From contig JAYMNP010000001.1 in the NCBI GenBank assembly GCA_036941025.1, positions 4,148,296-4,212,295 on the forward strand: a DNA stretch of 64,000 nt. The letters are read 5' to 3'. The notes below the pieces were generated by a model that was not told the origin of the DNA, did no database searches, and saw nothing but the letters and a program-made list of their open reading frames with translations. This document shows, piece after piece, positions 1 to 17,813 of this stretch. Made by a program: the position numbers and the translations under genes. Numbering within the stretch: the stretch's first letter is position 1; the number at the start of each line of letters is the position of its first letter. The DNA is from Lachnospiraceae bacterium JLR.KK002. Lineage in GTDB: Bacteria > Bacillota > Clostridia > Lachnospirales > Lachnospiraceae.

Positions 1-576
1 GAGGAGAAAGGTACTGTTTCTCCAAAAGACATGACGCTGGATGAGTATAAGGCATATTTTGATGAAAAGATGAACAGCCTGTATACACACCCTTCACAGA
101 GAGGCATGAATTGGACAATCGACATAACGGATGCGGCTTATAAGAAAATGCAGGAAGACCCGGAATATGAGAAGAAGATACTGGATGCACTGGCAAAGAA
201 CAAAGCCGTTGATTTCGGGGGAAATATCCCGGTGGCTGCGTATACCCATATAGATGATACTTATGAGAAATGCTACGGCTATACGCAGGGCATGAAGGAG
301 AATGTGGGGTATTCCGGGAGTTCTTCCGCAAAGAGGACTGATGCCGGACGGGAGAAAAAGGCAAGGCAGAAAGAACTGCTGGAAGAATATCTGGAAAAGC
401 GGGCGCAGGCTAAGAGGCAGCAGCAGGAGCTGTTGGATGAAAAGGTTGCTAAGGCGGAACAGGAGAGAAGCAGGCTGGCAAGGGCATGGAGCAGTAAGCA
501 GCAGATGGCGAAGGCTTCCAGTGCTTATGAAGCTAATGTCATGACGGAAACTATGGCAGGCGGTGAGATAAAGTAA
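1..576 (+). CDS. Array protein, coiled-coil family A (5' end outside window)
   Basis: The frame is open from the first base of the window, so the N-terminus is missing; the first in-frame ATG (position 31) lies where its paralogues are already well inside the protein. The 191 visible residues have a globular part (about 1-115) and an Arg/Glu/Gln-rich tail (KELLEEYLEKRAQAKRQQQ and onward) that reads as a coiled coil. Genes at 2880, 3645 and 16529 carry the same tail. No signal peptide or membrane segment is visible in this portion. The stop is one base before the next ATG, suggesting translational coupling. Function unknown. Confidence 0.8.
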   Translation, partial: EEKGTVSPKDMTLDEYKAYFDEKMNSLYTHPSQRGMNWTIDITDAAYKKMQEDPEYEKKILDALAKNKAVDFGGNIPVAAYTHIDDTYEKCYGYTQGMKENVGYSGSSSAKRTDAGREKKARQKELLEEYLEKRAQAKRQQQELLDEKVAKAEQERSRLARAWSSKQQMAKASSAYEANVMTETMAGGEIK

Positions 577-577
577 A

Positions 578-1972
578 ATGAATAACGTATCATTATCGAA
601 CAAAGTAATATATTGGAATCCCAGGGATTTTGCCGTGAGCCAGAATTTCAACAAGGTTATCCGGGAGAATGAAAAGATTTCCAATGATTATTACTGGAAA
701 AGCAATAAGTCTGAGGGTGCGGACTGTTTCGGGAGGACGCTTGACCTGACCACGCTTATCAACAAGCCGGACGGATATTTGCAGGGGCGGCTGTCGGATG
801 TGGACGATGCCGACTATTATCAGTTCAATATAGCGGAATACAGGATTTTAGGAACCGTGTCCGACAAGCGAAACCTTGACATAACAGTGACTCTTGACCA
901 TATCCCGGAGGGCTGTGATTATGACCTTGTTCTGTATGACGGTGACGGGAACCAGGTGGGGATTGGCAGGGATAATGGAAATGGCGGCAAGAGTGTGACC
1001 GTGCCGAACTGGAATCTGGAAAACCGGGAATATACGGTGAAGGTACTGGCAAAGGATGGCTCTCCGGTAAATGCAGAGGAATATTACCACCTTTCATTCC
1101 AAACGAAGCAGGCCGCAAATGATAACGTACTGAGGCAGCAGGCAAAGGAAATGCAGGAATATGCCTATGCACTGCGTAAAAAACTGCATGACGGCGGCGA
1201 TGCCACGGAAGAAAAGCTGGCGCTCCAGCAGATCAGGGAGAAGTACGGGGCATATTATACACAGCAGATGGATGAGCTGCATAACAAACAGGCAGCAGAA
1301 TATCTGGCAGAAGGGGAAGTTTTTGACGAGAGCAGGAAAGAGGAACTTCTTTCCAGAATGGCGGCGGGTGGGGAACTGACGGAGCAGGAGAAAGGGCTTG
1401 TCAGAGTTTTTGCATCCGCGCATGAGATTGACGGTGCAATGGCTTCCGCAAAACTGCGGACAGATATAAGTGAAAAAATCTTTCAGCAGATGGAGCAGTC
1501 CGGCGTTTCCCCCATACCTTCTTTTGAGGTCAGCATTGGCATAGACGGAAAGGCGGAAGTAAAGGGGATTGAAGATGCGGCTGTGAAGGAAAAAGTGGAG
1601 GACATCCTGAACGGTTTTTCCGGGGAACTGATGGATACTTATATTTCCATAAATGCCAGTATGCAAGGGATGACTAAGCAGGAGCAGTACATATTGAAAG
1701 CTGCAATGGGGATTGAGGCATTTTTGCAGAAAGCAATGGGCGGTAATGTGGCACTGTCAGATATCATGGTGGAGAACGGCAGGATAAAAGGGCTGGATGC
1801 GCCCCTTGACAGACTGCTTAATGATCCGGGGCAGAACCAGACATACCTTGATTACAGGGCAGACATACTTGCGATTAAGGATTATGAAAAGATGAATGGA
1901 AACAGTCTGCTGGGAGGATTCAGTGCAAGATATGCTGTTGACGGGGAAACAATCCGTATAATCGGTATATAA
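578..1972 (+). CDS. Large array protein with pre-peptidase C-like (PPC) domain
   Basis: 464 aa, starting one base after the preceding stop and probably coupled to it. Residues about 60-175 show the pattern of bacterial pre-peptidase C-terminal beta domains (DADYYQFNI, then a YDLVLYDGDGNQVG strand-turn and a YTVKV strand), normally a calcium- or carbohydrate-binding beta sandwich on secreted proteins. The remaining 290 residues are helical and include a DISEKIF...GKAEVKGIEDAAVKEKV segment shared with the paralogue at 14370. No signal peptide is present, so if it is exported it uses another route. The PPC assignment is from pattern recognition; biological role unknown. Confidence 0.75.
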   Translation: MNNVSLSNKVIYWNPRDFAVSQNFNKVIRENEKISNDYYWKSNKSEGADCFGRTLDLTTLINKPDGYLQGRLSDVDDADYYQFNIAEYRILGTVSDKRNLDITVTLDHIPEGCDYDLVLYDGDGNQVGIGRDNGNGGKSVTVPNWNLENREYTVKVLAKDGSPVNAEEYYHLSFQTKQAANDNVLRQQAKEMQEYAYALRKKLHDGGDATEEKLALQQIREKYGAYYTQQMDELHNKQAAEYLAEGEVFDESRKEELLSRMAAGGELTEQEKGLVRVFASAHEIDGAMASAKLRTDISEKIFQQMEQSGVSPIPSFEVSIGIDGKAEVKGIEDAAVKEKVEDILNGFSGELMDTYISINASMQGMTKQEQYILKAAMGIEAFLQKAMGGNVALSDIMVENGRIKGLDAPLDRLLNDPGQNQTYLDYRADILAIKDYEKMNGNSLLGGFSARYAVDGETIRIIGI

Positions 1973-2009
1973 AGCTGCAGGTAAGATTTTTTGAAGGAGG
2001 ATGAGAATT

Positions 2010-2783
2010 ATGTCAATGGAGATTAAGGGGAATCTTCCTGACTATGGAGTCAGGAAGCAGAATTACAGCAACTATACGGCAAATTATGTTGATACCGCGA
2101 AAAAGCCGGATAACAAGGCGGCAGCAGAGGTAAAGACAAACACATCAGCAAACAGCAAAGACAAGGTGCAGGCATATTATGAAAAGCTATGCAAGAAATT
2201 TCCGCAGATAAATTTCAATACAAATGGCGGCGTATTACCGAGTAACAGTAGCAGAGTTACGGTAAATCTTTCGTATGACTGTTTGAAGAAAATGGCAAAT
2301 GATCCTGAATTTGCAAAAGAAATCGAATGGAATCTGTCGGGAGAAGTTGCTGCAAACTCAATGGTTTATGGGTGGGCGCAGAGAGATGGTGTCGTGCTTG
2401 GCGGAAGAACTGTTACATATGATGCCAGTGGCAACAGGCAGTCATCCTGTGGTGGCATGAGGACAGCAAATACAGGAAACGGAAATAATAATACTGATAA
2501 AATACAGAAGAAGTATAAGGAAGAGGAAGAACGCCTGTTAAAAGCCAGAAAGAAACGTGAAGAAAAGGAAAAAATAGCTAAAAAGCAAGCAGAGAAAAAG
2601 GCAGAGGAAGAAAAGACGGCGGAACGTCGGGCAGAAAGAAAAGAACAGATGGAAAAACTGACAGAAGGGACATACAAGGTATCTGCCACTGGCACGGATG
2701 TGAAAAGTGTTACACAGAATATTGTTGAGGCGGTGTCAGGCACATCGTCACCGACAGGTGGAAGTTTTGACATAAAGGCATAA
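2010..2783 (+). CDS. Array protein, family B (N-module MSMEIKGNLPDYG)
   Basis: 257 aa. ATG 2010 is chosen over ATG 2001 because AGGAGG (1995-2000) lies nine bases before it and abuts 2001. The first 18 codons are almost identical at DNA level to those of the gene at 10089, after which the two diverge. A middle globular part is followed by a highly charged Lys/Glu helix (about 165-220) and a tail GTDVKSVTQNIVEA...FDIKA shared with genes at 5723 and 10089. No signal peptide or transmembrane segment. Unknown function; member of the co-oriented array. Confidence 0.8.
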   Translation: MSMEIKGNLPDYGVRKQNYSNYTANYVDTAKKPDNKAAAEVKTNTSANSKDKVQAYYEKLCKKFPQINFNTNGGVLPSNSSRVTVNLSYDCLKKMANDPEFAKEIEWNLSGEVAANSMVYGWAQRDGVVLGGRTVTYDASGNRQSSCGGMRTANTGNGNNNTDKIQKKYKEEEERLLKARKKREEKEKIAKKQAEKKAEEEKTAERRAERKEQMEKLTEGTYKVSATGTDVKSVTQNIVEAVSGTSSPTGGSFDIKA

Positions 2784-2879
2784 AGTTTGATATTGACAGC
2801 CATGTTGCAGCAGGAGAAAGTGGGAGAAGATAAGTAAATGACTTTGTATTAAATAAAGCTTAAAATGGAGGATTTGAAA

Positions 2880-3557
2880 ATGGCTATCAGTGGAGTAGGA
2901 CAAAATTATTACCAGAACAATGTGGAAACAAAGAGAAACACAAAGAATGTGAACGGTATGGAAAAAATTTGCACTGGAAAAGCAGGGAGTACGCAGGGCT
3001 TATCGGAAGCGGAAGAAATGGAACTGTTTAAGAAGGAATTTTATGCTGAACTTGAGAGGATACCACGAGATAAAACAATAGCAAATGTAGCGGTTAATAT
3101 ATCAGAGGAAGCGTTTAAAAATATGAAAGCTGATCCAAAGTACAGGGAACAAATGTTGTCTGTAATCAGGCGAGATATGACGGGTTCCGTTGCCCCGGCT
3201 CCGGACTGTTCTCTGGTGATTACGGTAGGAGCTACTGCCAAAGATTATAGGGCAGATGGCTGGTCTGTCAATAATGATTCAGAATTTTATGCCCGTTCAC
3301 AAAACAGTTTTTATAAAAAGACAAGTGGTAAACAAAATAATAAAAAGAAGCTGTTGGAAGAATATCTGGAAAAGCGGGCGCAGGCCAAGAGACAGCAACA
3401 GGAGCTGTTGGATGAAAAGGTTGCAAAGGCGGAGCAGGAGAGAAGCAGGCTGGAAAAGGCGTGGGATAGTAGGCGGCAGATGGCAAAGGCTTCCAGTGTT
3501 TATGATGCAAATATCATGACGGACACTGTGGCAGGTGGTGATTCGTTGCTCGGATAA
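2880..3557 (+). CDS. Array protein, coiled-coil family A (N-module SGVGQNYYQNN)
   Basis: 225 aa. GGAGG at 2866-2870 sets the start at ATG 2880. It opens with MAISGVGQNYYQNNVETKR, followed by an alpha/beta-looking middle (VAVNISEEAFKNMKADP, LVITVGA) and the family A coiled-coil tail (about 155-205) ending in MTDTVAGGDSLLG. It is very close to the following gene (3645), so this is a recent tandem duplication. No export signal is visible. Function unknown. Confidence 0.85.
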   Translation: MAISGVGQNYYQNNVETKRNTKNVNGMEKICTGKAGSTQGLSEAEEMELFKKEFYAELERIPRDKTIANVAVNISEEAFKNMKADPKYREQMLSVIRRDMTGSVAPAPDCSLVITVGATAKDYRADGWSVNNDSEFYARSQNSFYKKTSGKQNNKKKLLEEYLEKRAQAKRQQQELLDEKVAKAEQERSRLEKAWDSRRQMAKASSVYDANIMTDTVAGGDSLLG

Positions 3558-3569
3558 ATGCGGGTATCA

Positions 3570-3626
3570 TGCCCGGACTTCCAGCAAGGGAGCAAGAGCG
3601 GCCTGAACAACAGAGGCGCCGTAGTA
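3570..3626 (+). repeat. Type I intergenic element, copy 1 (degenerate)
   Basis: Begins TGCCCGGACTT, passes AAGGGAGCA and ends in a weakened hairpin (lower strand GCGG at 3598, CAGAG at 3611) just before the ribosome site of the next array gene. It is the least well-paired of the long copies. Confidence 0.6.
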
Positions 3627-3644: not shown

Positions 3645-4322
3645 ATGGTTATCAGTGGGGTGGGACAAAATTATTATCAGAACAATGTGGAAACAAAGAG
3701 AAACACAAAGAATGTGAACGGTACGGAAAAAATTGACACTGGAAAAGCAGAGAGTACGCAGGAATTATCGGAAGCGGAAGAAATGGAACTGTTTAAGAAG
3801 GAATTTTATGCTGAACTTGAGAGGATACCAAAGAATAGAACAATTACCAATCTGGCAGTCAATATATCGGAGGAGGCATTTAAAAATATGAAAGCCGATC
3901 CGGAATATAGGGCAAAGATAATGTCGGCGCTTCAGCGTGATCTGACGTCATCGTTTGCTCCGTTAAAAGCATCATTACTTATAACGGTAGGAGCGACCGA
4001 GAAAGATTATAGAGGAGATTCATGGTCTGGCCCTAATAATGATTCGGAGTTTTTTGCACGTTCGCAGGATAGTTTTTATAAGAAAACAAGCGGGAAGAAA
4101 GACAGGAATAAGGAATTGCTGGAAGAATATCTGGAAAAGCGGGCGCAGGCCAAGAGACAGCAACAGGAGCTGTTGGATGAAAAGGTTGCTAAGGCGGAAC
4201 AGGAGAGAAGCAGACTGGCAAAGGCATGGAGTAGTAAGCAGCAGATGGCGAAGGCTTCCAGTGTTTATGATGCAAATATCATGACAGAAACTATGGCAGG
4301 CGGTGATTCGTTGCTCGGATAA
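3645..4322 (+). CDS. Array protein, coiled-coil family A, tandem duplicate
   Basis: 225 aa. The AGGAGG at 3631-3636 and alignment with the previous gene place the start at ATG 3645 rather than in the repeat upstream. It has the same layout as the gene at 2880: N-module MVISGVGQNYYQNN, a middle domain (LAVNISEEAFKNMKADPEY), an LLITVGATEKDY strand, and the coiled-coil tail. The N- and C-terminal parts are nearly unchanged while residues about 85-150 differ, so the variable part is the middle. Function unknown. Confidence 0.85.
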   Translation: MVISGVGQNYYQNNVETKRNTKNVNGTEKIDTGKAESTQELSEAEEMELFKKEFYAELERIPKNRTITNLAVNISEEAFKNMKADPEYRAKIMSALQRDLTSSFAPLKASLLITVGATEKDYRGDSWSGPNNDSEFFARSQDSFYKKTSGKKDRNKELLEEYLEKRAQAKRQQQELLDEKVAKAEQERSRLAKAWSSKQQMAKASSVYDANIMTETMAGGDSLLG

Positions 4323-5109: not shown

Positions 5110-5571
5110 ATGAGCGTTAGCGGAATAGGACATAATTATTATCAAAACAATGTAGCAACAAATAAACACAACAAGAGCAGGGTCGGACAATTTTCCCCAC
5201 AAAAACAGGAAACAGAGGTGTCTGCACCCGAAGATACAAGGCAGAATGCCAATGTGCAGGATATTTATAAGGCGCTTAAATCAACAAATCCATTATTGGA
5301 GCAGGAGGATAATGACGTATCAGATGAAGAATTGAAGCAGGAAGATAAACAAGAATCTGAATCAAAGACAGAAATTATTGTTAAGCCAGACGGTTCAAGA
5401 GTGCTTGTAATGACAATGAGTATCGGCGGAATGGAAACAACCATGAGCTTAGAAATTTCTAAACCGACAGAAGCACCCAATGAAAATGCAAAGCAGGAGA
5501 CCGATAATACGCCTACGGCTGAAAATGATACTGTATCAAATGAAATGTCGAATGTTTCAAGTGAAGTATAG
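5110..5571 (+). CDS. Array protein with SGIGHNYYQNN N-module and acidic body
   Basis: 153 aa, ATG eight bases after GGAGG. The N-terminus MSVSGIGHNYYQNNVATNK matches the family A N-module, but there is no coiled-coil tail. Instead there is an acidic, Gln/Glu/Asp-rich linker, one short beta-like stretch (TEIIVKPDGSRVLVMTMSIGG) and a disordered tail. This is a clear case of the N-module on an unrelated body. Function unknown. Confidence 0.75.
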   Translation: MSVSGIGHNYYQNNVATNKHNKSRVGQFSPQKQETEVSAPEDTRQNANVQDIYKALKSTNPLLEQEDNDVSDEELKQEDKQESESKTEIIVKPDGSRVLVMTMSIGGMETTMSLEISKPTEAPNENAKQETDNTPTAENDTVSNEMSNVSSEV

Positions 5572-5722: not shown

Positions 5723-6391
5723 ATGGCAATTTCAGGAGTAACAGATTACACAAACGCTTATGCAGGTTACACAAATTCTGCAAATGGCAAAAGGCAGGCG
5801 GCAGAGGGAGCGGGTACAGCAAAGGAAACAGCGGTCAGAAAGACGGCAAAGGATGAATTGTCCTATCTTACTGAAAAGTACGAATGTATGAAAAGCAAAG
5901 ATTATTCAGTAAATATAAACAGTTCTCTTTTAGCGAAAGCTGCAAGTGATGAAAAAACATCTGAATGGCTGGAATATAATTTATCTTTGATTCCGAAAGT
6001 AGTTGATAATATAAAGTCAGCGGCGGCATCGCGTGGCGCAAAAATGATAAGCTGTGATATTACCATGAATGGATATGACAGTATGACTACAGAAGTTGTT
6101 ACTCAGGTAGAAGTTGATCCGGGAACAGAAAAAGCAGGGGAAGAACTGGAAGAAAAGATTAAGGAGAGAAAGGAAGAAAAGAAGGCGCAGGAGGAAAAAG
6201 CGGCTAAAAGACGGGATGAGAAAAAGGCAGAAGAAAAGGCTGCGGAAAAACGGGCAGAGGGGAAAGAACTGACGGAAATGTTTACAGTATCTGCTGCTGG
6301 CAGTGATGTAAAAAGTGTTACACAGAACCTCATAGCAACGATTTCTGGCACATCGGAACCCAAAGGGGCGGGTTTTGACATAAAGGTATAA
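5723..6391 (+). CDS. Array protein, family B
   Basis: 222 aa, start supported by AGGAGG at 5708-5713. N-terminus MAISGVTDYTNAYAGYTNS is a variant of the shared motif. The middle (VNINSSLLAKAASDEKTSEWLE) is close to that of the gene at 10089. A Lys/Glu/Ala helix (about 140-185) leads to the family B tail (SVTQNLIATISG...GAGFDIKV). No signal peptide or membrane helix. Function unknown. Confidence 0.8.
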   Translation: MAISGVTDYTNAYAGYTNSANGKRQAAEGAGTAKETAVRKTAKDELSYLTEKYECMKSKDYSVNINSSLLAKAASDEKTSEWLEYNLSLIPKVVDNIKSAAASRGAKMISCDITMNGYDSMTTEVVTQVEVDPGTEKAGEELEEKIKERKEEKKAQEEKAAKRRDEKKAEEKAAEKRAEGKELTEMFTVSAAGSDVKSVTQNLIATISGTSEPKGAGFDIKV

Positions 6392-6811: not shown

Positions 6812-6909
6812 AACAGGAGTTGGAATGACACCGACGTGCAAAGGGAGATTGTTTCGGCAGATGGCAAGCATAATAATAAGTTAAGATAAAGGAAAGGGAA
6901 ATGCAGATT

Positions 6910-7641
6910 ATGAATGTTAAAATGAATCGTTATATGAATCAGGCATCATATACGGCGGCAGCAGGCGAAAGAGCGTCAGAGTCTCATGTTGACGGCAGGG
7001 TTGAGAATGAAACGAAGTCTGGCGCAAACAGGGATACTGTATCAATTTCTGCCGCAGGACAGCAGTTTTACGCTGAAAAAACGGAAACAAATACTGATAT
7101 GGACTTGATACATATCGGTTCTGATATAGATGAATTCAGAAACGCTGTATCCTCTATGAATGAAAAACTGCCCGTTAGTTGGAAGGCAATGGTTGACCCA
7201 TACAATACGATTACAAATCTGGCTAAAGCAGAGTTCCGCCTGAAACAGTTAGCAGATCCGGCGGCTTCTCATAAAGATGAAGACATAGAGAAAGGTGCAG
7301 AGGCGTACGCGAAGGAAAAGATTGATGAATTGATAGAAAAGAAAAAAGCTATGATTGCTGACGGAACGGCAAAAACCGCAGCCGAGGAGTACGAAGAATA
7401 CAAAACGGCATACGATGCTTACCATTCAGAAAACGGCAGCAGCCTGATCGAAAAGATGACAGGAGATACAAAGAAAGCATATGACATATACAAAAATATC
7501 ATTGATGGAACAAAAATATCAATGAATGACGAGAAGTTTCTTATTTTCCATAATTGGACAATGTACAGAGCAGCAAAAGACGAATACATTCGGAAAACCG
7601 ACGAACTATATAATACAATGAATGGTATTCCTTTAAAATAG
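6910..7641 (+). CDS. Array protein of unknown family (VSISAAG motif)
   Basis: 243 aa from ATG 6910; ATG 6901 would leave only about two bases after the purine-rich AGGAAAGGG. N-terminus MNVKMNRYMNQASY. A DTVSISAAGQQFY segment (about 50-62) resembles NLSISDEG in the gene at 10814. The remainder is predicted helical (EEYEEYKTAYDAYHSENG, TKKAYDIYKNIIDG). No signal peptide or membrane segment. No family recognised. Confidence 0.75.
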   Translation: MNVKMNRYMNQASYTAAAGERASESHVDGRVENETKSGANRDTVSISAAGQQFYAEKTETNTDMDLIHIGSDIDEFRNAVSSMNEKLPVSWKAMVDPYNTITNLAKAEFRLKQLADPAASHKDEDIEKGAEAYAKEKIDELIEKKKAMIADGTAKTAAEEYEEYKTAYDAYHSENGSSLIEKMTGDTKKAYDIYKNIIDGTKISMNDEKFLIFHNWTMYRAAKDEYIRKTDELYNTMNGIPLK

Positions 7642-7791: not shown

Positions 7792-8838
7792 GTGAATATT
7801 GATTATAGACAGTTTTACAGAGGGACAACAAATATCCCCTTATATGGAAGTGGTGCATATAAGAAAGACACCCTTGTAAAATATGAGTTTAACACCACGG
7901 ATGAGCATGGCAACAAGATCATGGATAAGATGTCAAAGGAGGAAACCTTGCAGGCGATGAAAGACATCCGTTCACAGTATGGGGATTCGGTTATCGTGGA
8001 GTTTTCCGGCGATGGACTGGCGGCTCTTGCGGAGGACAGGAGGGATAGCATGTCGCCGGAAGATCGGGAAGCAATGGAGGAGAGAAATGCAGCATTCCAA
8101 AAGGATATTGTGCAGATTGACAAATCCTTAAATAATTTTCCGGCATATTCGGGGATGTACGGCGCAGACAAGGCGGTTGCGTCTGCGTTGGAGAACTGTG
8201 GCAAGGAGGATCAGGGATTTGTGTATGACATCATCCGGCAGAACTTCCTTGTCGGGAACAGCGGCTCCATGACGGAGGAGGAACGTCAGGCGAACATATC
8301 GCTCGGCATGAAGAAAGCAGAATATGCGGCGGAGAACTTTATCCCGGAGGAAAGTCGGAAGTCATTCATGGAGGCGATGGAATCCATTGCGAAGCTGGCA
8401 AGCGCAGGAAAAGCAGATCCAAGTGGAAACATGGATTACGGTATGGCGCAGGGCAGGTATTTAGGGCATGGGAGCGGACTTGTCAGGACAACAAGTGCGC
8501 TTGACATGATGCGGACAATGGATAAGGACGCATACGCAGAGTACCAGAAGATGGGGAAAAACGATGACGGCGGGCTTAGCTCGTTGAAATACCTTACAAA
8601 CTGGTATGCAGGCGCAGTAAAGAAGAATCCTTTGATGGTTGATAATTACGAAAAGCAGTCGGATGAATATGTGGAGAAGAATGTGAAAAATCAGAAGTTG
8701 GATAAAACTTTTGCGGGCTTAAAGACAGGGAGCAAGGCCGCTTTCTTTGAAAGCCTGAAAATGTTCCAGAGCAACAATCCCAATTTTCTCTCATCCATCG
8801 TAAACCAGGAGCTGACATCGAAGTTTTGGGGATTTTAG
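7792..8838 (+). CDS. Array protein, 348 aa, unknown family
   Basis: GTG 7792 is chosen because AGGAG (7778-7782) is well spaced and the upstream in-frame codons are the noncoding repeat. The protein starts MNIDYRQFYRGTTNIPLYG. It is soluble and mostly helical after a KDTLVKYEFNTTDEHGNKI beta-like region, with a conserved-looking GMAQGRYLGHGSGLVRTTSA segment (about 220-240). No catalytic motif could be assigned. Confidence 0.75.
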   Translation: MNIDYRQFYRGTTNIPLYGSGAYKKDTLVKYEFNTTDEHGNKIMDKMSKEETLQAMKDIRSQYGDSVIVEFSGDGLAALAEDRRDSMSPEDREAMEERNAAFQKDIVQIDKSLNNFPAYSGMYGADKAVASALENCGKEDQGFVYDIIRQNFLVGNSGSMTEEERQANISLGMKKAEYAAENFIPEESRKSFMEAMESIAKLASAGKADPSGNMDYGMAQGRYLGHGSGLVRTTSALDMMRTMDKDAYAEYQKMGKNDDGGLSSLKYLTNWYAGAVKKNPLMVDNYEKQSDEYVEKNVKNQKLDKTFAGLKTGSKAAFFESLKMFQSNNPNFLSSIVNQELTSKFWGF

Positions 8839-8951: not shown

Positions 8952-9488
8952 ATGAATGTAAATGGAATAGGGGCAGCAGGGTATCCGGCATGGCAGGGAG
9001 CGAGAAAGGCAGAAAGCAGTACGAAAGGCGGCTTTGGGGCAAATGTGCAGGGTGCAAAAAATGTAGTACATATTGACCCTGACGCAGTATTTTCTATCCA
9101 TCATGTAAAGACAGGAGAAAGCGCAAATGTATACCGGGCGGATGATTATTCAGAAGATAATCCGGTTTACCTCGTGAAAGGCACTGACAAAAACGGAAAT
9201 GAATACGAGCAGACGGTGGATGTGAGCAAGGTAAATCCAAATAGCTGCTCTTATACGGAGCTGCTTGCGTTAAATGCGCATACAGGGAATAGATCGGACA
9301 GTAATTTTATGACCATGTCGATATTAAAGGATAAGATGGGCGGTACTTCCTACCACGAAAAAACGGATTATATGACGATGGCACACGAACTTATGAATGA
9401 TATGAAAACGCTTGGAAATTGGGACGGATATTTGCGGTATAACAAATGGATCAATGACATTATGACTTTCTGCAAAAGCAAATTATAA
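8952..9488 (+). CDS. Array protein, family C (N-module MNVNGIGAAGYP)
   Basis: 178 aa, ATG eight bases after the TGGAGG at 8938-8943. N-module MNVNGIGAAGYPAWQGARK, then the family C core in divergent form: DDYSEDNPVYLVKGTDKNGN, VDVSKVNPNSCSYTELLALN, and a C-terminal MNDMKTLGNWDGYLRYNKW helix. It is shorter than the 192-198 aa paralogues. Unknown function. Confidence 0.8.
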   Translation: MNVNGIGAAGYPAWQGARKAESSTKGGFGANVQGAKNVVHIDPDAVFSIHHVKTGESANVYRADDYSEDNPVYLVKGTDKNGNEYEQTVDVSKVNPNSCSYTELLALNAHTGNRSDSNFMTMSILKDKMGGTSYHEKTDYMTMAHELMNDMKTLGNWDGYLRYNKWINDIMTFCKSKL

Positions 9489-10088: not shown

Positions 10089-10781
10089 ATGGCAATGGAG
10101 ATTAAGGGGAATCTTCCTGACTATGGAGTCAGGAAGCAGAATTACAGCAATTTGGAACAGGTTAATACAGATAAAGAAGTGCGGACAAAAGCAGTAAAGA
10201 AGGAAACGGAAAAGAAAAGCACATACGGGAGCAGACGGGAATATTCAGAATATCTGAATCATAAATATGCCTGCCTGACACCAACAAAGGACAGTTCCGT
10301 GACAATCAATTCCAGCCTGCTTTCAAAGGCGGCATCTAATCCCAAAACGGCTGAATGGCTGGAGAATACGCTTTCCCAAATGCCGGACTGTATCAATAAG
10401 ATATGTGAAAATTCTGCTAAAAATGGGGCGAGGCTGGTCAGTCTGGAAATCAGCATAGACAGCGAGGACTGTATTACGACAAAGTGCGTAGGTGTTTTTG
10501 AAGCTGACCCCGGTACAGAGGAGTCCAAGAAAATGGCAGAGGAGGCGAGAGCCAGAAATAAAGAGCGTAAAGAGGAATGGGAAAAGCTGCTTGAAAAGAA
10601 TAAGGAAAAGAAGGCTGGGCAGGAGAAGCTGGAAGAAAAGAAAGATGGCAGGCAGTATGATATTACTGTAATGGGAACGGATATGGGAAAAGTTACAGAG
10701 AACTTGATAAGTAAAATTGGCAGGGGTAATAGTTCCATATCCACAGTACCGACAGTGACAGGCTTTGATTTAAAAGTGTAA
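10089..10781 (+). CDS. Array protein, family B (N-module MAMEIKGNLPDYG)
   Basis: 230 aa. AGGAGG at 10075-10080 supports ATG 10089. The first 18 codons and the leader (CTACAGGTAAGATTTTT) repeat those of the gene at 2010. The body (VTINSSLLSKAASNPKTAEW) matches the gene at 5723 instead. A charged helix KERKEEWEKLLEKNKEKK precedes the tail GTDMGKVTENLIS...VTGFDLKV. It therefore looks like a recombinant of two relatives. Function unknown. Confidence 0.8.
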   Translation: MAMEIKGNLPDYGVRKQNYSNLEQVNTDKEVRTKAVKKETEKKSTYGSRREYSEYLNHKYACLTPTKDSSVTINSSLLSKAASNPKTAEWLENTLSQMPDCINKICENSAKNGARLVSLEISIDSEDCITTKCVGVFEADPGTEESKKMAEEARARNKERKEEWEKLLEKNKEKKAGQEKLEEKKDGRQYDITVMGTDMGKVTENLISKIGRGNSSISTVPTVTGFDLKV

Positions 10782-10813: not shown

Positions 10814-11578
10814 ATGAGTGTGAATGGAATTGGAAGCAATTATTGTTATATGGGGACTGCTGTAAATCATATGCAGGAAAAGGCATCTGATACGAATGCA
10901 GGCAGGAAAGTGACGCAACAGCCAGTTAATCTCTCTATTTCTGATGAGGGAAGAAATATGCTGCGGGAAATGGTAAATAAATTTGAACCTGATTCGGATT
11001 ATGTCAATGCAAGGGAGCTGACAATACAAAATACAAATGAGGTTGCATGGGAACATTATACGGCAATGAGGGGAATCAGCAGCCAGACATTAAAAGATGG
11101 GAACTATAATGTGGAAGATGTAATGAAATCAATCATGGATACATATGAGGCGCGTTATAATGAAATCGTAAAAAAACATGAAAAGGGAGACCGTGAAGTT
11201 TCTTACGAACTTACGGGGAAAAGGTCTCTTACGCTTGAAGAAGATTTGGCTGGGCTGGATGAGGCTTTTAAGATGCGTCTGGCAAATCTGGAAGGATATA
11301 TTACCTGTCAGCAGACAAACAAAGCCTTTGAAAATCCGGACAGTTCATGGTTTTTCAATAGAAACGGTTCTCAAAATGAAGGAGAAGAACAAGACAGGAT
11401 TCAGCTTTTTGACACAGAATACCGGGATTTGGCAGTATCAATCATGGAACAGACAAGAGAAAAGTTTTTGGCGGCTTTTAAGAGTTTTGGCTACAAAAAA
11501 GGAACAGCGTTAGACATATTCGCAAATGTATTGAAAGAGAATATAAACTTTGCGGCAAAAACAAATAATTTATTGTAG
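10814..11578 (+). CDS. Array protein with SVNGIGSNY N-module, unknown body
   Basis: 254 aa, ATG after TGGAGGATATTTGAAA. N-terminus MSVNGIGSNYCYMGTAVNH. A QPVNLSISDEGRNMLREM stretch (about 36-53) recalls the VSIS motif of the gene at 6910. The rest is helical with acidic patches (LTLEEDLAGLDEAFKMRL) and ends in FANVLKENINFAAKTNNLL. No signal peptide, no membrane helix, no known fold recognised. Confidence 0.75.
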   Translation: MSVNGIGSNYCYMGTAVNHMQEKASDTNAGRKVTQQPVNLSISDEGRNMLREMVNKFEPDSDYVNARELTIQNTNEVAWEHYTAMRGISSQTLKDGNYNVEDVMKSIMDTYEARYNEIVKKHEKGDREVSYELTGKRSLTLEEDLAGLDEAFKMRLANLEGYITCQQTNKAFENPDSSWFFNRNGSQNEGEEQDRIQLFDTEYRDLAVSIMEQTREKFLAAFKSFGYKKGTALDIFANVLKENINFAAKTNNLL

Positions 11579-11675: not shown

Positions 11676-12347
11676 ATGCCAATTAGTATTTTAAATTATC
11701 CGGTACATTTGCAGGAAGGGCTTAAACTTAATAGAGAGTGCGTGAAGTCTAAGGGAAGCCAAAATGAAGACCGGAAAGTATTTCACAGGGATTCCTTAGA
11801 AGTTTCCCAATTATCGAAAAACAGGGAAATCATAACGGATAAAATAAAGCATACGGTAGTGCAGTCGGCTGCATCGTTCAGCGATATGAGAGCTGGAATC
11901 TTAAAAGAAATCAGGGAAGAAAAAGGGCAGTATGGTTATCACGATGTAGTGAATGCCTGCGGGTTGAGCTATGCAAGACTGTATTCAGAAATCGAACTGC
12001 GTCATGAAAATGAACAGTATTATAAGACAGATGGGACGCCGCTGACAAAGGAAGAAGAGACAGAATGGCTGGATATGCAGTATGGGCAGGAAGTGGAGTG
12101 GCAGAAGTCCTGTGCCAGAATAGCGGCACAAGGGCAGGCATTTCAGGGAAATATTTCGGAAACGCCGACAAAAGAGATGGAAGAATTGGAAGCTGCTTTT
12201 TATCAGGCGAAGGATGCTTATATGAAGTTGCACCATGAAAGCAAACAGGATGGGAGGCCGCTTGCTTTGCAGAATTTTGTTTTTGGGAACAGCCGGATGT
12301 ATGAAGTGCTGGACAGATTAGGAAATTTGCAGGAGAGGGTGGAATAA
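11676..12347 (+). CDS. Array protein, unknown family
   Basis: 223 aa. GGAGGG at 11660-11665 selects ATG 11676. Starts MPISILNYPVHLQEGLKLNR and has a DSLEVSQLSKNREI segment in the position where its neighbours have VSIS motifs. The remainder is helical (EIRKEE-type, then EMEELEAAFYQAKDAYMKLH). Its stop TAA shares a base with the next ATG (TAATG at 12345), implying coupled translation with the following gene. Confidence 0.75.
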   Translation: MPISILNYPVHLQEGLKLNRECVKSKGSQNEDRKVFHRDSLEVSQLSKNREIITDKIKHTVVQSAASFSDMRAGILKEIREEKGQYGYHDVVNACGLSYARLYSEIELRHENEQYYKTDGTPLTKEEETEWLDMQYGQEVEWQKSCARIAAQGQAFQGNISETPTKEMEELEAAFYQAKDAYMKLHHESKQDGRPLALQNFVFGNSRMYEVLDRLGNLQERVE

Positions 12348-12952
12348 TGCAGGTTAATTCGTCCAATGGCTCATTGCAGAACAGATACTTTTCAGGGACA
12401 GGAAGCATAGGAGGTATCCATCTGCCTGACTTTCATGATAGATATGTTTTCTCCAAAAAGAAAAGCGGCGTCAGTGATGAGGAGTACCGGAGGCAGATCA
12501 GGGAACAGGCTTATAAGGATTTTGAAAAAGGGCAGTTCCAAAACAAATCCGAAGGATTTAATAAGCTGATGAAAAGTTACACATCGGAAGTGTCCCCGGA
12601 CAGAAAGGGAATCATCACTTCCGGGCTGAAAGCCGTTTCAAAGAACAGGAAGAATGTGCCTAAGCCCATAGACATTGTGGCAACGCTGCTTGAAGGGAAA
12701 GTGAAATATCAGAAACTGCCATCAGGAAACAGCGATTACATAGAATTTTACGATAAGAATGGGGAAATGGTGGCGACTTATTCCAATAATGGGTGGACGA
12801 TGTATACCACCAATGCGGAGGCATCCAGACAGACGGAAATGTGCATGATCTATAATGAGGCATGGGGAAACGCAAAGAGGGGCATTCCGCTGGCGGGTGA
12901 AGAAGCGGTGGGTGTGGAAAATCCGCAGAATAGTTTTGACGCTAAAGCATAG
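12347..12952 (+). CDS. Array protein, unknown family, coupled to upstream gene
   Basis: 201 aa, starting inside the previous stop codon. Low-complexity N-terminus MQVNSSNGSLQNRYFSGTG, then a DEEYRRQIREQAYKDFEKGQ helix, and a compact beta-looking block YIEFYDKNGEMVATYSNNGW followed by TMYTTNAEASRQTEMCMIYN. No export signal. The coupling suggests the two products act together or must be made in equal amounts. No family recognised. Confidence 0.75.
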   Translation: MQVNSSNGSLQNRYFSGTGSIGGIHLPDFHDRYVFSKKKSGVSDEEYRRQIREQAYKDFEKGQFQNKSEGFNKLMKSYTSEVSPDRKGIITSGLKAVSKNRKNVPKPIDIVATLLEGKVKYQKLPSGNSDYIEFYDKNGEMVATYSNNGWTMYTTNAEASRQTEMCMIYNEAWGNAKRGIPLAGEEAVGVENPQNSFDAKA

Positions 12953-14369: not shown

Positions 14370-15914
14370 ATGGGAATCAGTAATGTGAATGACCAGACTT
14401 TTGCATATGGAGCGGCTTTCAGGAACAAGCCAATATTCTTTATGACGGGAAAAGAGACAGAAGCATTTTTTAATGGGAAGATGCGCAGGAACATGGAGCT
14501 GCGGGAGGATACCTGTACCCTTAGCAGCAATCATACATACCGCAGGCAGCATACTGTCTATGAGGTTTCTGACAGGGATAAAGGCAGCGCATTCCTGGAT
14601 TTGAATTTTCTGATCAAGGATGAGACCAGCAGCCTAAAAGGAAACCTCAGTGATGATAAAGATGTGGATTTTTATAATTTTTCCATCCCATTTATGAGTA
14701 TGCAGAGGAATTACTTTAGCGTTGAGGCTTATCTGGATATGCCGGAGGGGTGCGATTATGACCTTACCTTGTATGACGAATACGGCAATCAGGTAGGAAA
14801 GGCAGAGTGGGACGGGGAAGGCCGGAAGAAGCTGAACATCCCGAATTGGGATATTGACACCAATAAATACTGCCTTAAAGTGGAAAAGGGAAACGGGGAG
14901 GAGGTTTCCCCGGATGATTATTACAAGATCAGTTTCCATGTTTCTGAAAATAAGGAGCATGAAAAGACGGATGCCGTCAGGGAAGCATATGGGAATCTCC
15001 ATAATGCATACAGCCGGAAGGATGAAAACTGGCGGGAGTATCTTGATAAATATAATGCCGTCTTAAAGGAGACGGAGCAGAATTACAGGAAAGAGCTGGA
15101 GCAGCTCCAACAGAAACAGTTTGACAGCCTGCCGGAAGAAAAGAAGTATAAGGGCGGGCGTACCGTGGATGAACTGCTTAAGGACATGGCGGAGGGGAAG
15201 GACTTAAACGGTGCGGAACTGGAGTATGTGAAGATTTTTGCCAACCTGAAAGACATGGAAAAGGCGCAGAATAAAGCGGAGCTGAAAAACAGCTTTTCAA
15301 ATGATTTCGTTAAGGATTTGGAGGGGTTGGGTATTTCCCGTGACGACATAGAGGGTATGCGTGTAAGGATTGGGAGCAATGGGGATGTGGCCGTGGACGG
15401 GATAGAGGATAGAGCCGTCCGGGAACAGGTACGGAAACTGATAGATGAAAAATACGGTGACCGGATGTACCAGTATTACATAGGGATTGCGGACAGCGTG
15501 GGGAATCTGCCCTCTAATGCATACAAATATGCTACGGACGTGCAGGAAGTCCGGCGTTACCTGAAAGGGGTTACGGGAGAGGATATTTCATTAGAAAATC
15601 TTTATCTGACACCAGACGGGAAGATCGGAGGGCTGCCGGAGAAAGCTGCCAGCCTGATCAATAAGACAAAGGACAATGCCAAGATCGAACGGATGAAGGA
15701 TGCGCTGGTGGATATCATAGGGAATATCAGGATAAGCGGCGGTCTGGGAATTCCCGATTTTACTTCACAGTTCCAGTTTAAGGACGGGGCGTTCTCCGTG
15801 GCGGACAGCGGTTTTGCGGTGGATATGGGCGCACTGGATGGCCGTCTGACCCCACAATCTTCTGGCAATATGTATTCCGATATGTATAAATATCAGTTCA
15901 GAAAAGTGTTGTAA
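14370..15914 (+). CDS. Large array protein with PPC-like domain, paralogue
   Basis: 514 aa. TGGAGGG at 14354-14360 supports ATG 14370 (MGISNVNDQTFAYGAAFRNK). Residues about 95-205 hold the PPC-like domain (DVDFYNFSIPF, YDLTLYDEYGNQVG, YCLKVEKGNG). A long helical part follows (ETEQNYRKELEQLQQKQFDS), then a block shared with the gene at 578 (ISRDDIEGMRVRIGSNGDV, AVDGIEDRAVREQV). The two PPC proteins sit near opposite ends of the main array. No signal peptide. Function unknown. Confidence 0.75.
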   Translation: MGISNVNDQTFAYGAAFRNKPIFFMTGKETEAFFNGKMRRNMELREDTCTLSSNHTYRRQHTVYEVSDRDKGSAFLDLNFLIKDETSSLKGNLSDDKDVDFYNFSIPFMSMQRNYFSVEAYLDMPEGCDYDLTLYDEYGNQVGKAEWDGEGRKKLNIPNWDIDTNKYCLKVEKGNGEEVSPDDYYKISFHVSENKEHEKTDAVREAYGNLHNAYSRKDENWREYLDKYNAVLKETEQNYRKELEQLQQKQFDSLPEEKKYKGGRTVDELLKDMAEGKDLNGAELEYVKIFANLKDMEKAQNKAELKNSFSNDFVKDLEGLGISRDDIEGMRVRIGSNGDVAVDGIEDRAVREQVRKLIDEKYGDRMYQYYIGIADSVGNLPSNAYKYATDVQEVRRYLKGVTGEDISLENLYLTPDGKIGGLPEKAASLINKTKDNAKIERMKDALVDIIGNIRISGGLGIPDFTSQFQFKDGAFSVADSGFAVDMGALDGRLTPQSSGNMYSDMYKYQFRKVL

Positions 15915-15938
15915 ACAGCAGGCAGGAGGATTAAAAAA

Positions 15939-16436
15939 ATGAGCATAAACGGAATAGGGACAGCAGCTTACTCGATAGAAAGGTATCCGGCGGGAAAAGC
16001 AGAAAAGAGCGCAGAATTTGGGACTGTGGGATTTATGGATATAGCGGCGGAAAAGGCAGCGCAGGATAAAGCAGCCAATCAGGATGAAAAAGCCTTTGAG
16101 ATGGTCGGCAGGGGTGCCCCGCAAGGCGTAAAGGATGCGTGGATGGATGCGGCGAAAGAAGTAAATGCAAATGGCATGGGAATCCGGGGCAACGGAATGA
16201 TGAGCCATATATCGCAGATGATGGTGCAGCGGCTCAACAAACAGCTTAGGGGTGAAACGGAGAATTTTGACATTCTTGGAAATACAGTGGAATCTGCGAT
16301 CCAGGCGACGAAACAGGCACTGTACGATTTGGAGCATCCCGTGGTATATACGCCCAGAAGCATAGAGGTTCAGCAGGCGCGCATGAAAGAAGGGGAATTT
16401 TACAGGGCATTTTTGGAGAAGCTGGAACGGTTATAG
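15939..16436 (+). CDS. Array protein with SINGIGTAAY N-module
   Basis: 165 aa, AGGAGG in the short 24-base gap. MSINGIGTAAYSIERYPAGK is the shared N-module; the body (MMSHISQMMVQRLNKQLRGE, VESAIQATKQALYDLEHP) occurs nowhere else in the window. Soluble, helical. Function unknown. Confidence 0.75.
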   Translation: MSINGIGTAAYSIERYPAGKAEKSAEFGTVGFMDIAAEKAAQDKAANQDEKAFEMVGRGAPQGVKDAWMDAAKEVNANGMGIRGNGMMSHISQMMVQRLNKQLRGETENFDILGNTVESAIQATKQALYDLEHPVVYTPRSIEVQQARMKEGEFYRAFLEKLERL

Positions 16437-16476
16437 ATGCTTTTCCCAATAAGCCACAAGGCGAATAAGACAGAGC

Positions 16477-16506
16477 AGGGGCGGCTCTGAATGCCAGAGG
16501 AGCCGC
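16477..16506 (+). repeat. Type I intergenic element, copy 6
   Basis: A truncated type II start (CCCAATAAGCCACAAG, 16445) precedes the hairpin: GCGG/CCGC, CTCTG/CAGAG, loop AATGC, bulge GAG. Confidence 0.75.
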
Positions 16507-16528
16507 AGTATCGAAGGAGGATTTTAAA

Positions 16529-17209
16529 ATGGCTGTCAGCGGAGTAGGGCAAAATTATTATCAGAACAATATGGAAACAAAGAGGAACACAAAAAATGTA
16601 AACAGTGCGGATAAGTTTGCGCTGGAAAAGACAGGAAGCACGCAGGAATTATCGGAAGCGGAAGAAATGGAACAGTTTAAGAAGGAATTTTACGAAGACC
16701 TGTCTAAAGTTACAAACCACAGGGCGGTGAGCAATGCGGCTGTCAATATCTCGGAGGCTGCATTCAAAGCGATGAAGGAAGACCCGCAATATAGGGAAAA
16801 GGTTCTTTCGCTGATCCAAAGGGATTGGGGAGATTCCTATGCGCCGAGGAACTGTTCCGTGCTGATAACTGTTGGTGCGACATTAAATGAGTACAGGGCG
16901 GATTCATGGCCAGTAGGGTATGATTCGGAATTTGATGTGCGGTCACAGAACAGTTTCTATAAAAGGACGAGTGAAAAGAAAGACAAACAGAAGGAGCTTC
17001 TGGAAGAATATCTGGAAAAGCGGGCGCAGGCTAAGAGACAGCAGCAGGAGCTGTTGGATGAAAAGGCTGCAAAAGCGGAGCAGGAGAGAAGCAGACTGGA
17101 AAAGGCGTGGGCTGGCAGCAGGCAGATGGCGGCGGCATCCAGTGCCTATGAATCAAATATGATGACAGAAACTGCTGTAAACGGCGATTCATTGTTTGGT
17201 TCGTTATAG
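16529..17209 (+). CDS. Array protein, coiled-coil family A
   Basis: 226 aa, AGGAGG nine bases before the ATG. N-module MAVSGVGQNYYQNNMETKR, a divergent middle (AVNISEAAFKAMKEDPQY, VLITVGATLNEY) and the conserved coiled-coil tail (about 155-200). It is 13 kb from the tandem pair at 2880/3645, yet the tail DNA is almost the same, which suggests gene conversion or recent exchange. Function unknown. Confidence 0.85.
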   Translation: MAVSGVGQNYYQNNMETKRNTKNVNSADKFALEKTGSTQELSEAEEMEQFKKEFYEDLSKVTNHRAVSNAAVNISEAAFKAMKEDPQYREKVLSLIQRDWGDSYAPRNCSVLITVGATLNEYRADSWPVGYDSEFDVRSQNSFYKRTSEKKDKQKELLEEYLEKRAQAKRQQQELLDEKAAKAEQERSRLEKAWAGSRQMAAASSAYESNMMTETAVNGDSLFGSL

Positions 17210-17234
17210 TAAAGCAATGGAGGAGATTAAGGAA

Positions 17235-17813
17235 ATGAATGTAAATGGAATAGGAGCAGGATATCCGGCAGCAGGGTATGAAACGAGAAAGACAGAGAGA
17301 AATGCGATGGGGAGGAATTACGCTGACCAGATGTGCAGTATGGTTCCGGCAACACAGGCATCCGGTGGCACATTTGAGTTACATATTTCAAACGATAAGG
17401 ACGGAAAAGCAATCGGCTCAATGTGTGGGACTGATTATTCCCTTACAGTCTATCAGCCAAACGATTTTGATCCTGCAAATCCAGTGTATAAGGTTAAGGT
17501 ATGGGATAAAGACGGAAATGTGACAGAACGCATGGTAGATGTGTCAAAGATTGATACAAAAAACAGTGACTATATTGATATGTTTGCATATTCCAGCCAC
17601 TTATCGGCAAGCGGGAAATGTCCGGGCGCACAGTCTGCTTTTATCAGGGCAGGGGCAAATCAGCATGGTGCTGACAATAGGACACATGATGATTTGTTCG
17701 GGATGGAAGATTGGATCAGCGTTTTAAAGGACGCTATGCAGACGCAGTATGATGCCGGGAATATGAAAGGCTATCTGGATTATAAGCAGTTTTGGGATTT
17801 TCTGGATAAGTAG
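17235..17813 (+). CDS. Array protein, family C (N-module MNVNGIGAGYP)
   Basis: 192 aa. GGAG at 17220 and alignment with paralogues select ATG 17235. N-module MNVNGIGAGYPAAGYETRK; body GGTFELHISNDKDGKAIGSM, DFDPANPVYKVKVWDKDGN, VSKIDTKNSDYIDMFAYSSH, and the GYLDYKQFWDFLDK end. It is the intact counterpart of the frameshifted copy at 28484. Followed by a hairpin shared with that copy. Confidence 0.85.
   Translation: MNVNGIGAGYPAAGYETRKTERNAMGRNYADQMCSMVPATQASGGTFELHISNDKDGKAIGSMCGTDYSLTVYQPNDFDPANPVYKVKVWDKDGNVTERMVDVSKIDTKNSDYIDMFAYSSHLSASGKCPGAQSAFIRAGANQHGADNRTHDDLFGMEDWISVLKDAMQTQYDAGNMKGYLDYKQFWDFLDK

What the first reader, a model, noticed from the sequence alone, without database searches (positions are those of the whole stretch)
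1..17813. One-directional array of soluble proteins sharing a short N-terminal module on different bodies
At least nine predicted proteins (2880, 3645, 4423, 5110, 8952, 10814, 15939, 16529, 17235; looser at 5723) begin Met-x-[IV]-[SN]-Gly-[IV]-Gly with Tyr soon after, and lack a signal peptide. Bodies differ: coiled coil, VYKVK-W-DKDGN domain, acidic, helical. A conserved leader on variable bodies suggests a shared address tag, for example a secretion or partner-docking signal for a polymorphic effector or structural set. That role is inference; the motif and layout are visible.
Basis: partly seen in the sequence, partly recalled or inferred. Interest (0 to 1): 0.82.

Follow-up and report, generated by a model that had tools for sequence, protein, structure and literature searches.

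The report
Flagellum-linked tagged cargo protein array
A gut-type bacterium carries a run of about two dozen mostly unstudied genes, many of whose proteins share a short interchangeable front end on different bodies, and genome comparisons tie them to the bacterial flagellum, suggesting that the flagellum's export channel may also ship this mixed cargo out of the cell.

Summary
In detail: all nine genes start M-x-[IV]-[SN]-G-[IV]-G after a good ribosome site, on different bodies. In this genome the motif pattern occurs 12 times (reversed control 1), nine in this array. The genome, close to Lachnospiraceae, has flagellar genes. Three members are Pfam DUF6033. In 250 family genomes DUF6033 is almost confined to genomes with the flagellar export gate FlhA: 80 of 81, against 48 of 169 genomes without DUF6033; the type VII marker WXG100 shows no link. 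Canonical DUF6033 genes have sigma-28-type promoters in 14 of 21. LytTR regulators at array loci, including both own arrays, have one in 21 of 78 cases against 29 of 1732 other genes. In three other genomes DUF6033 genes sit beside flagellar genes. Residues 1-45 of two modelled proteins are disordered. Similar front ends replace the normal start of short flagellins. Best reading: a flagellar-regulon, modular protein set exported by the flagellar type III apparatus. The regulon link is well supported; export is inferred. A conserved leader hairpin precedes many array genes.

The parts
1..576 (+). array gene, 2880-type body; its true start lies about 100 bases before the window
   Evidence: 46-54% identity to 2880/3645/16529 over 150-177 residues; the same frame continues upstream in L011
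578..1972 (+). array gene, 464 aa, relative of 14370
   Evidence: 31% identity to the 14370 protein over about 365 residues; no Pfam family over cut-off
2001..2783 (+). DUF6033 protein, N-terminal type MSMEIKGNLPDYG (from ATG 2010), C-terminus GGSFDIKA
   Evidence: PF19498 8e-14; modelled from 2010: residues 1-45 pLDDT under 50, body mixed, mean 70
2880..3557 (+). motif protein MAISGVGQNYYQNN, coiled-coil-like by eye, weak DUF6033
   Evidence: motif; PF19498 1e-4, under cut-off
3645..4322 (+). motif protein MVISGVGQNYYQNN, paralogue of 2880
   Evidence: 81% identity
4423..5019 (+). motif protein MSISGIGTAGYP with VYKVK-W-DKDGN body
5110..5571 (+). motif protein MSVSGIGHNYYQNN with acidic body; only its first 22 residues match the 2880 type
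5723..6391 (+). DUF6033 protein with looser motif MAISGVTDY, C-terminus GFDIKV
   Evidence: PF19498 7.5e-10
6901..7641 (+). array gene; a short stretch near its N-terminus weakly resembles the FlgM-like protein of this genome
   Evidence: BLASTP E 0.009 over 31 residues for the single comparison: suggestive only
7792..8838 (+). array gene, no family over cut-off
8952..9488 (+). motif protein MNVNGIGAAGYP, VYKVK-family body
10089..10781 (+). DUF6033 protein; 65 bases at its start 98% identical to gene 2001, body about 31% identical
   Evidence: PF19498 7e-8; repeat D7
10814..11578 (+). motif protein MSVNGIGSNYCY, body without family
11676..12347 (+). array gene MPISILNYPV
12347..12952 (+). array gene MQVNSSNG, C-terminus NSFDAKA
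14370..15914 (+). array gene MGISNVND, 514 aa, relative of 578
15939..16436 (+). motif protein MSINGIGTAAYS
   Evidence: 70% identity to L047 7921 in a genome of the same genus
16529..17209 (+). motif protein MAVSGVGQNYYQNN, paralogue of 2880
17235..17813 (+). motif protein MNVNGIGAGYP, VYKVK-family body
   Evidence: modelled: residues 1-45 pLDDT under 50, 114 of the other 147 residues at 90 or more
3590..3626 (+). leader hairpin upstream of 3645
   Evidence: model R1, 25.5 bits
4355..4392 (+). leader hairpin upstream of 4423
   Evidence: R1, 51.5 bits
5042..5079 (+). leader hairpin upstream of 5110
   Evidence: R1, 54.8 bits
5643..5680 (+). leader hairpin upstream of 5723
   Evidence: R1, 38.5 bits
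8882..8919 (+). leader hairpin upstream of 8952
   Evidence: R1, 40.6 bits
16473..16510 (+). leader hairpin upstream of 16529
   Evidence: R1, 46.7 bits
28420..29049 (+). leader hairpin and degenerate copy of gene 17235, split into two frames
   Evidence: R1 52.7 bits; ORFs 28484-28732 and 28729-29049

Best explanation
The array is part of the flagellar (sigma-28, late-gene) programme of a gut Lachnospiraceae-type bacterium. It encodes a modular set of soluble proteins, many with a disordered N-terminal module of about 25-45 residues (M-x-[IV]-[SN]-G-[IV]-G...Y and variants) on an exchangeable folded body. Proposed mechanism: sigma-28 and a linked LytTR regulator/kinase pair switch the operon on once the hook-basal body is finished; the polar, weakly charged N-terminus is threaded into the flagellar type III export gate (FlhA/FlhB/FliPQR), as with FlgM or flagellin, and the bodies leave the cell. 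Modules and bodies are reshuffled by recombination, giving strain-specific cargo. Shown here: array, modularity, flagellar co-occurrence, promoter enrichment, neighbourhoods, predicted disorder. Inferred: the export step, the signal role of the module, and any function outside.
For: Co-occurrence: DUF6033 in 81 of 250 family genomes (249 genera), 80 with FlhA, against 48 of the 169 others (Fisher 5e-30, not corrected for kinship). DUF3879, also found at array loci, in 16 of 250, all 16 with FlhA. In 291 class genomes 12 pass the DUF6033 cut-off, all 12 with FlhA, against 100 of the other 279. Control: WXG100 in 26 of 81 against 45 of 169, p 0.37. Promoters: 14 of the 21 best-scoring DUF6033 genes, 0.95 expected in shuffles, threshold set after a first look; LytTR regulators 21 of 78 against 29 of 1732, both own arrays included. 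Neighbours: G106 flagellin C-terminal domain, LytTR, kinase, DUF6033 and FliS; G225 FlgL-like and FlgM; G511 FlhA and a sigma factor. N-termini: charged 0.137 against 0.252, STNQGY 0.53 against 0.30; residues 1-45 disordered in two models. 17 of 20 short flagellins have a similar front end. C-terminal [FL]D-x-[KR]-x ends are shared with flagellar-locus proteins.
Against: No secretome or export assay. The TARA-N15/16-CCGATA pattern alone is weak in this genome (49 against 36 for the reversed control); one of this genome's six Flagellin_N genes showed the site within 300 bases; and no TAAA-N14-18-CGATA lies in the window, so array transcription rests on the operon-head site. None of the 20 short flagellins had such a site in the 250-300 bases examined; in 11 regions viewed they lie outside arrays, and they keep the flagellin stretch that I recall as an export signal, so the module need not be theirs. 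One DUF6033 genome (G235) has no FlhA match, though its gene has a TTAA-N16-CCGATA site. In two other-family genomes DUF6033 genes lie beside peptide, ABC-transporter and protease-like genes. 48 FlhA genomes lack DUF6033. LytTR genes were found in 22 of 35 full-length related loci, not all. Gly5 codon bias shows nucleotide-level constraint.
Confidence: 0.6

Rival explanations
1. Flagellar-regulon proteins that stay inside the cell: regulators, chaperones or anti-sigma-like factors. The shared N-terminus docks them on one partner, for example FliA, FliS, FliW/CsrA or the LytTR pair, and the bodies tune motility.
For: Same co-occurrence and promoter evidence; weak FlgM-like stretch in 6901; arrays often sit beside regulators.
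Against: About nine different bodies behind one disordered N-terminus is odd for a regulator family; a similar front end also occurs on flagellin bodies; modules and bodies are reshuffled.
Confidence: 0.2
2. Exported, but structural: array proteins are accessory parts of the hook, filament or cap rather than free cargo.
For: In some genomes adjacent to flagellin or FlgL-like genes; FlxA-domain proteins at two of the loci.
Against: No flagellar axial domain found in the array bodies scanned; 48 of 128 FlhA genomes lack DUF6033; bodies vary much for a fixed structure.
Confidence: 0.15
3. The shared start is mainly a nucleic-acid feature: a hairpin leader, ribosome site and first codons copied by gene conversion, perhaps a CsrA- or other RNA-binding control region, with no role for the peptide.
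For: Leader hairpin with compensatory changes before many motif genes; Gly5 is GGA in 73 of 75; 94% and 98% identical starts between genes with different bodies.
Against: Other motif codons vary synonymously: Ile, Val, Ser, Asn. The hairpin model matched in 7 of 27 foreign array-type loci only, while proteins there still have related N-termini.
Confidence: 0.12
4. A type VII (WXG100/ESX) or other Sec-independent effector set unrelated to flagella.
For: Soluble proteins without signal peptides, one-directional arrays.
Against: No WXG100 match in this genome (20 of its 40 first-look candidates were scored) and no association in 250 genomes.
Confidence: 0.02

Closest known systems
Pfam DUF6033 (PF19498), DUF3879 (PF12995), FlxA-like (PF14282)
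   Same: Genes 2001, 5723 and 10089 pass the DUF6033 cut-off; related loci hold DUF3879 and FlxA-like proteins.
   Different: 4423, 5110, 8952, 10814, 15939 and 17235 match none of them; the two DUF names carry no function.
Non-flagellar cargo of the flagellar type III system: Cia proteins of Campylobacter jejuni, YplA of Yersinia (passages of PMC9856085 read)
   Same: Proteins of flagellated bacteria proposed to leave by the flagellar channel, without being flagellar parts.
   Different: Those are Gram-negative proteins with tested export; here a modular array in a Gram-positive gut lineage, export untested.
FlaC-type secreted flagellin of Campylobacter (only the start of the abstract of PMC4863622 seen, in listings)
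   Same: Flagellin-like protein not involved in motility but secreted; compare the short flagellins.
   Different: Here the flagellin start is replaced by an array-like front end; secretion not tested.
FlgM, the secreted anti-sigma-28 factor (passages of PMC7911332 read)
   Same: Short N-terminal signal that can carry fused proteins through the flagellar channel; a FlgM-like gene of this genome has a sigma-28-type site (named by eye).
   Different: No FlgM domain reported in the array proteins scanned; only a weak stretch in 6901.

Membership tests
DUF6033 (PF19498) | whole-protein score over the Pfam gathering cut-off | tested here: met
   met for 2001, 5723 and 10089 only; 2880 is under the cut-off, 16529 only E 0.58; no DUF6033 match listed for 4423, 5110, 8952, 10814, 15939, 17235, so the array as a whole is not one DUF6033 family
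flagellar type III substrates | genome encodes the flagellar export gate | tested here: met
   FlhA match 1.9e-264; six Flagellin_N matches; FlgK-, FliD-, FliS-like genes seen by eye
flagellar type III substrates | sigma-28-type promoter (late genes) | tested here: met
   TAGA-N16-CCGATA at the head of the regulator-array run and a site before the regulator of the second own array; group statistics; the single-genome pattern is weak and no transcript was seen
flagellar type III substrates | disordered N-terminus without Sec signal | tested here: met
   (two proteins modelled)
flagellar type III substrates | export that depends on FlhA/FliI | not testable with these tools
   needs secretome of wild type and deletion strains
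type VII (WXG100/ESX) substrates | WXG100 proteins in the genome | tested here: not met
   no match in this genome; 20 of 40 first-look candidates scored
polymorphic toxin system | constant N-terminal part on variable C-terminal bodies | tested here: met
polymorphic toxin system | recognisable toxin domain with linked immunity gene | tested here: not met
   Pfam for 20 of 24 called genes, NCBIfam for 10 of them: no toxin family over cut-off; immunity genes were not searched for
integron-type cassette array | integrase and attC sites | not tested
   leader hairpin noted but no integrase or attC search was made

The most novel reading that the evidence does not exclude
Flagellated gut Lachnospiraceae use the flagellum as a general secretion machine. 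A sigma-28-controlled, LytTR-tuned operon makes a reshuffled set of cargo proteins, addressed by one interchangeable N-terminal module (and perhaps a C-terminal FD-x-K end), and the same kind of module has been grafted on truncated flagellins that are secreted instead of polymerised.
Probability: 0.4. Interest if true: 0.87.

Novelty: new variant of a known kind. Interest (0 to 1): 0.72.

Why it matters
If the export step holds, a group of gut commensals would have a secretion route and a variable secretome that current annotation does not show: DUF6033 and DUF3879 bear no function, and no paper in the searched library names either, nor DUF4885 or DUF6470. It would give a testable place to look for how flagellated Lachnospiraceae act on host or neighbours beyond flagellin itself, and a short peptide that could be tested as an export signal in Gram-positive bacteria.

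Tried and rejected

Limits of the counts. The related loci L077-L155 were fetched with the VYKVK family, so 72 of the 128 strict motifs belong to it. The array-family set used was chosen by me. Rows dropped: 79 of 85 distinct leaders went into A4; A5 holds 59 leaders, one of them (window 4355) not in A4; A2 holds 44 of 121 family members and A3 26 of 67, after length and identity filters. In one search I examined 27 of the 29 foreign flagellin loci fetched; 19 were short and 8 canonical (7 of those 8 with a sigma-28-type site). The pattern giving 17 of 20 was written after seeing these sequences; it matches 175 of 327 array and 14 of 1328 other proteins. The leader regex fixed most loop letters, so loop conservation is partly by construction. 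The hairpin model was not run on L077-L155; there I used the regex. The 1732 control genes include array genes. Gene calls in fetched loci come from my own simple caller; many gene names in foreign loci are by eye. Related species are not independent. Genome searches score a capped number of candidates per genome.
Full report
What was checked. The nine motif starts are all present and all have good ribosome sites. The array genes run on one strand from the start of the window to 17813, with transposase-like genes downstream (IS21-like by eye). The array starts before the window: in the upstream stretch L011 a LytTR-type response regulator (found by a profile of its relatives), a kinase-like gene and the first array gene (C1:4147463) precede it. 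The window lies at C1:4148296-4212295 of a 4.28 Mb genome.

Is it more than chance? A DNA pattern for the motif gives 12 matches in the whole genome against 1 for the reversed pattern. Nine are the array genes; the others are one gene of a second array near C1:2705843, one degenerate copy at window 28484, and one inside a transposase-like frame. In the 250-genome family sample 102 genomes have a match, mostly one or two, some beside DUF6033 genes; the reversed control is scattered too and I did not total it. So the exact spelling is concentrated in this lineage.

What the proteins are. Genes 2001, 5723 and 10089 pass Pfam's cut-off for DUF6033; 2880 is just under it. Of the 24 called genes 20 were scanned with Pfam and 10 with NCBIfam; besides DUF6033 only a redox family (9608) passed a cut-off. 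The proteins are modular. Genes 2001 and 10089 share 65 bases at their start at 98% but their proteins are about 31% identical; 5110 shares only its first 22 residues with the 2880 type; a protein of another genus (L045 7752) has the 17235-type front end on a body unlike that of 17235, and a protein with a like body (L052 9115) has a different start (by eye; the two fall with the family-10 cluster). Of 1655 called proteins of own and related loci, 128 have the strict motif, on 16 body clusters, 0.035 expected.

Link to flagella, 1: co-occurrence. In 250 genomes of the family (249 genera) DUF6033 occurs in 81 and FlhA in 128; 80 of 81 DUF6033 genomes have FlhA, against 48 of the 169 others. The exception, G235, has a DUF6033 gene with a TTAA-N16-CCGATA site upstream and is an assembly of about 200 contigs, so loss or a gap are both possible. 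DUF3879, found at foreign array loci, occurs in 16 of 250, all with FlhA. Across 291 genomes of the class, 12 pass the DUF6033 cut-off and all 12 have FlhA, against 100 of the other 279; with weaker matches counted it is 14 of 15. The type VII marker WXG100 shows no association, 26 of 81 against 45 of 169, and had no match here. These tests are not corrected for kinship.

Link to flagella, 2: promoters. Fourteen of 21 DUF6033 genes (the 20 best foreign loci and this genome's own) have a TAAA-N14..17-CCGATA-like site within 250 bases, 0.95 expected in mononucleotide shuffles; the threshold was set after a first look. In this genome the site reads TAAACGTTTCCCGTATTTATCCGATA, 46 bases before the DUF6033 gene near C1:1033390. 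LytTR regulator genes of the array loci have such a site within 400 bases in 21 of 78 cases (18 distinct sequences) against 29 of 1732 other genes, Fisher 3e-17; both own arrays (L011, L008) are among the 21. Of 35 related loci over 20 kb, 22 have a LytTR gene. Positive controls: this genome's FlgM-like gene and one of its six Flagellin_N genes have the site, and so do 7 of 8 canonical flagellins of other genomes. The counter-result is that the bare TARA-N15/16-CCGATA pattern is only mildly enriched in this genome (49 against 36).

Link to flagella, 3: neighbours. In G106 one run holds a flagellin C-terminal domain protein (1.1e-23), a LytTR regulator, a GHKL kinase, several array-type proteins including DUF6033, a canonical DUF6033 gene with a sigma-28-type site, and FliS (2.7e-14). 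In G225 DUF6033 (6.5e-14) stands next to csrA- and fliW-type genes, DUF6470, an FlgL-like protein, FlgK- and FlgN-like genes and FlgM (csrA, fliW, flgK and flgN named by eye). In G511 DUF6033 and an FlxA-like gene follow FlhA, a sigma factor and chemotaxis-like genes. Not all relatives are so placed: this genome's flagellin genes are elsewhere on the chromosome, and in two genomes of other families DUF6033 genes lie beside small Cys-rich peptide, ABC-transporter and protease-like genes (by eye).

The N-terminal module. AlphaFold models from 44 and 26 sequences give pLDDT under 50 for residues 1-45; the body that follows is confident in the VYKVK protein (pTM 0.74) and partly so in the DUF6033 protein (pTM 0.45, with a disordered C-terminal end). 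Array N-termini are poor in charge and rich in S, T, N, Q, G and Y, and none of 269 has a hydrophobic stretch of signal type. Codons of the motif vary synonymously, except Gly5, which is GGA in 73 of 75 against 53 of 75 for Gly7: selection acts on the peptide, with some nucleotide-level constraint as well.

The flagellin bridge. This genome has a short flagellin-domain protein (Flagellin_N 6.9e-31) starting MSISSIGRSQSLY. A search of 160 genomes, of which 50 matched, found similar short flagellins whose normal start is replaced by front ends such as MPISGIG, MGISAIG, MSSISGV or MSGVNGIG; 17 of 20 fit a loose pattern that 14 of 1328 unrelated proteins fit (the pattern was drawn after seeing them). 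In the 11 regions viewed these genes are not in arrays, though in one (G034) a canonical DUF6033-type gene with a sigma-28-type site lies 6.6 kb away; and none of the 20 has such a site in the 250-300 bases examined. So the bridge supports a shared kind of front end, not a shared operon.

The other end. 38 of 327 array proteins end in [FLMI]D-x-[KRTQ]-x, 0.15 expected in shuffles, and so do 11 of 1328 others: by eye eight array-like, one regulator-like frame, a flagellar-locus protein (L061) and a DUF6470 protein beside fliW. This genome's own protein at the flagellar locus L158 785 ends TGGFDMKI and its FlgN-like protein SGFDAKQ. A second tag, perhaps for a flagellar chaperone, is possible but untested.

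The leader hairpin. Upstream of many motif genes is a hairpin with loop core TCTGA-N-Y-GACAGA: 101 copies in 56 of 104 sources searched by regex, 90 with an ORF within 150 bases downstream. In the alignment of 79 leaders six of nine pairs show changes on both sides; 88% of cells pair; the covariation score is 0.354 against 0.285 in shuffles and at most 0.211 when slid, while two of the five measures (pairs with double change, pair types) do not exceed the shuffles clearly. A covariance model finds it in both own arrays and not in five own flagellar regions, and in 7 of 27 foreign array-type loci but none of 11 short-flagellin regions. Rfam has no match in 1-18900 at E up to 1.

Mechanism, with status. 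Shown: co-occurrence with the export gate, enrichment of sigma-28-type sites on canonical members and array regulators, flagellar neighbours in some genomes, modular N-termini predicted as disordered. Inferred: late expression after hook completion, entry of the N-terminus into the export gate, release of bodies outside, and any role there. Background: FlgM leaves by this route and its signal can carry fused proteins (passages of PMC7911332); non-flagellar proteins such as Cia and YplA use it in Gram-negatives (passages of PMC9856085).

Novelty. Full-text searches of the held library found no paper naming DUF6033 or any of DUF3879, DUF4885, DUF6470, PF12995 and PF19498, and I saw none describing this for Lachnospiraceae in the listings, judged from titles and abstract starts. 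Subscription papers and preprints were not searched. I file it as a new variant of a known kind: flagellar-system-linked non-flagellar proteins, here as a reshuffled, front-end-tagged array in Gram-positive gut bacteria.

Noticed in passing
window 3590-3626, 4355-4392, 5042-5079, 5643-5680, 8882-8919, 16473-16510, 28420-28457 (weaker: 10024-10061, 13936-13972): Conserved hairpin leader with compensatory changes and no Rfam match, 101 regex copies in 56 of 104 sources; candidate new RNA element.
   Followed up: partly
window 9546-9592, 13008-13054, 13895-13941, 14275-14321: A second repeat (GGCAGGCATCCCCGG...) stands before the genes at 9608, 13083, 14022 and 14370.
   Followed up: no
window 28484-29049: Degenerate copy of gene 17235 with its leader, split into two overlapping frames, beyond the transposase-like genes.
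   Followed up: partly
window 18882-31856: Several transposase-like genes (IS21-like pair at 18882-21202, others to 31856, by eye) next to the array, and transposase-like genes inside the matching array of L077: a possible source of reshuffling.
   Followed up: no
window 6536-6811, 9608-10033, 13083-13840, 14022-14231: Genes that look like outsiders in the array: a small lipoprotein-like gene (6536, by eye), a C_GCAxxG_C_C redox protein (Pfam 1.7e-12), and by eye a tautomerase-like, a YbhB-like and a zinc-ribbon protein.
   Followed up: no
L071 5021-15368, L072 9209-16557: In two genomes of other families DUF6033-type proteins sit beside Cys-rich small peptides, ABC transporters and subtilase-like genes, resembling a modified-peptide cluster (names by eye).
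   Followed up: no
L044, L049, L051, L055: By eye, BlaI/BlaR1-like repressor and M56-like membrane protease genes stand next to DUF6033-type genes in several genomes.
   Followed up: no
L156 8953-9765; L192-L208, L210, L212: A class of short flagellins lacking the normal N-terminal 25-30 residues, with array-like starts, scattered in Lachnospiraceae-type genomes.
   Followed up: partly
L158 785-1099, L190 619-1131: A protein at a flagellar locus and the FlgN-like protein of this genome end in FDMKI and FDAKQ, like many array proteins.
   Followed up: no
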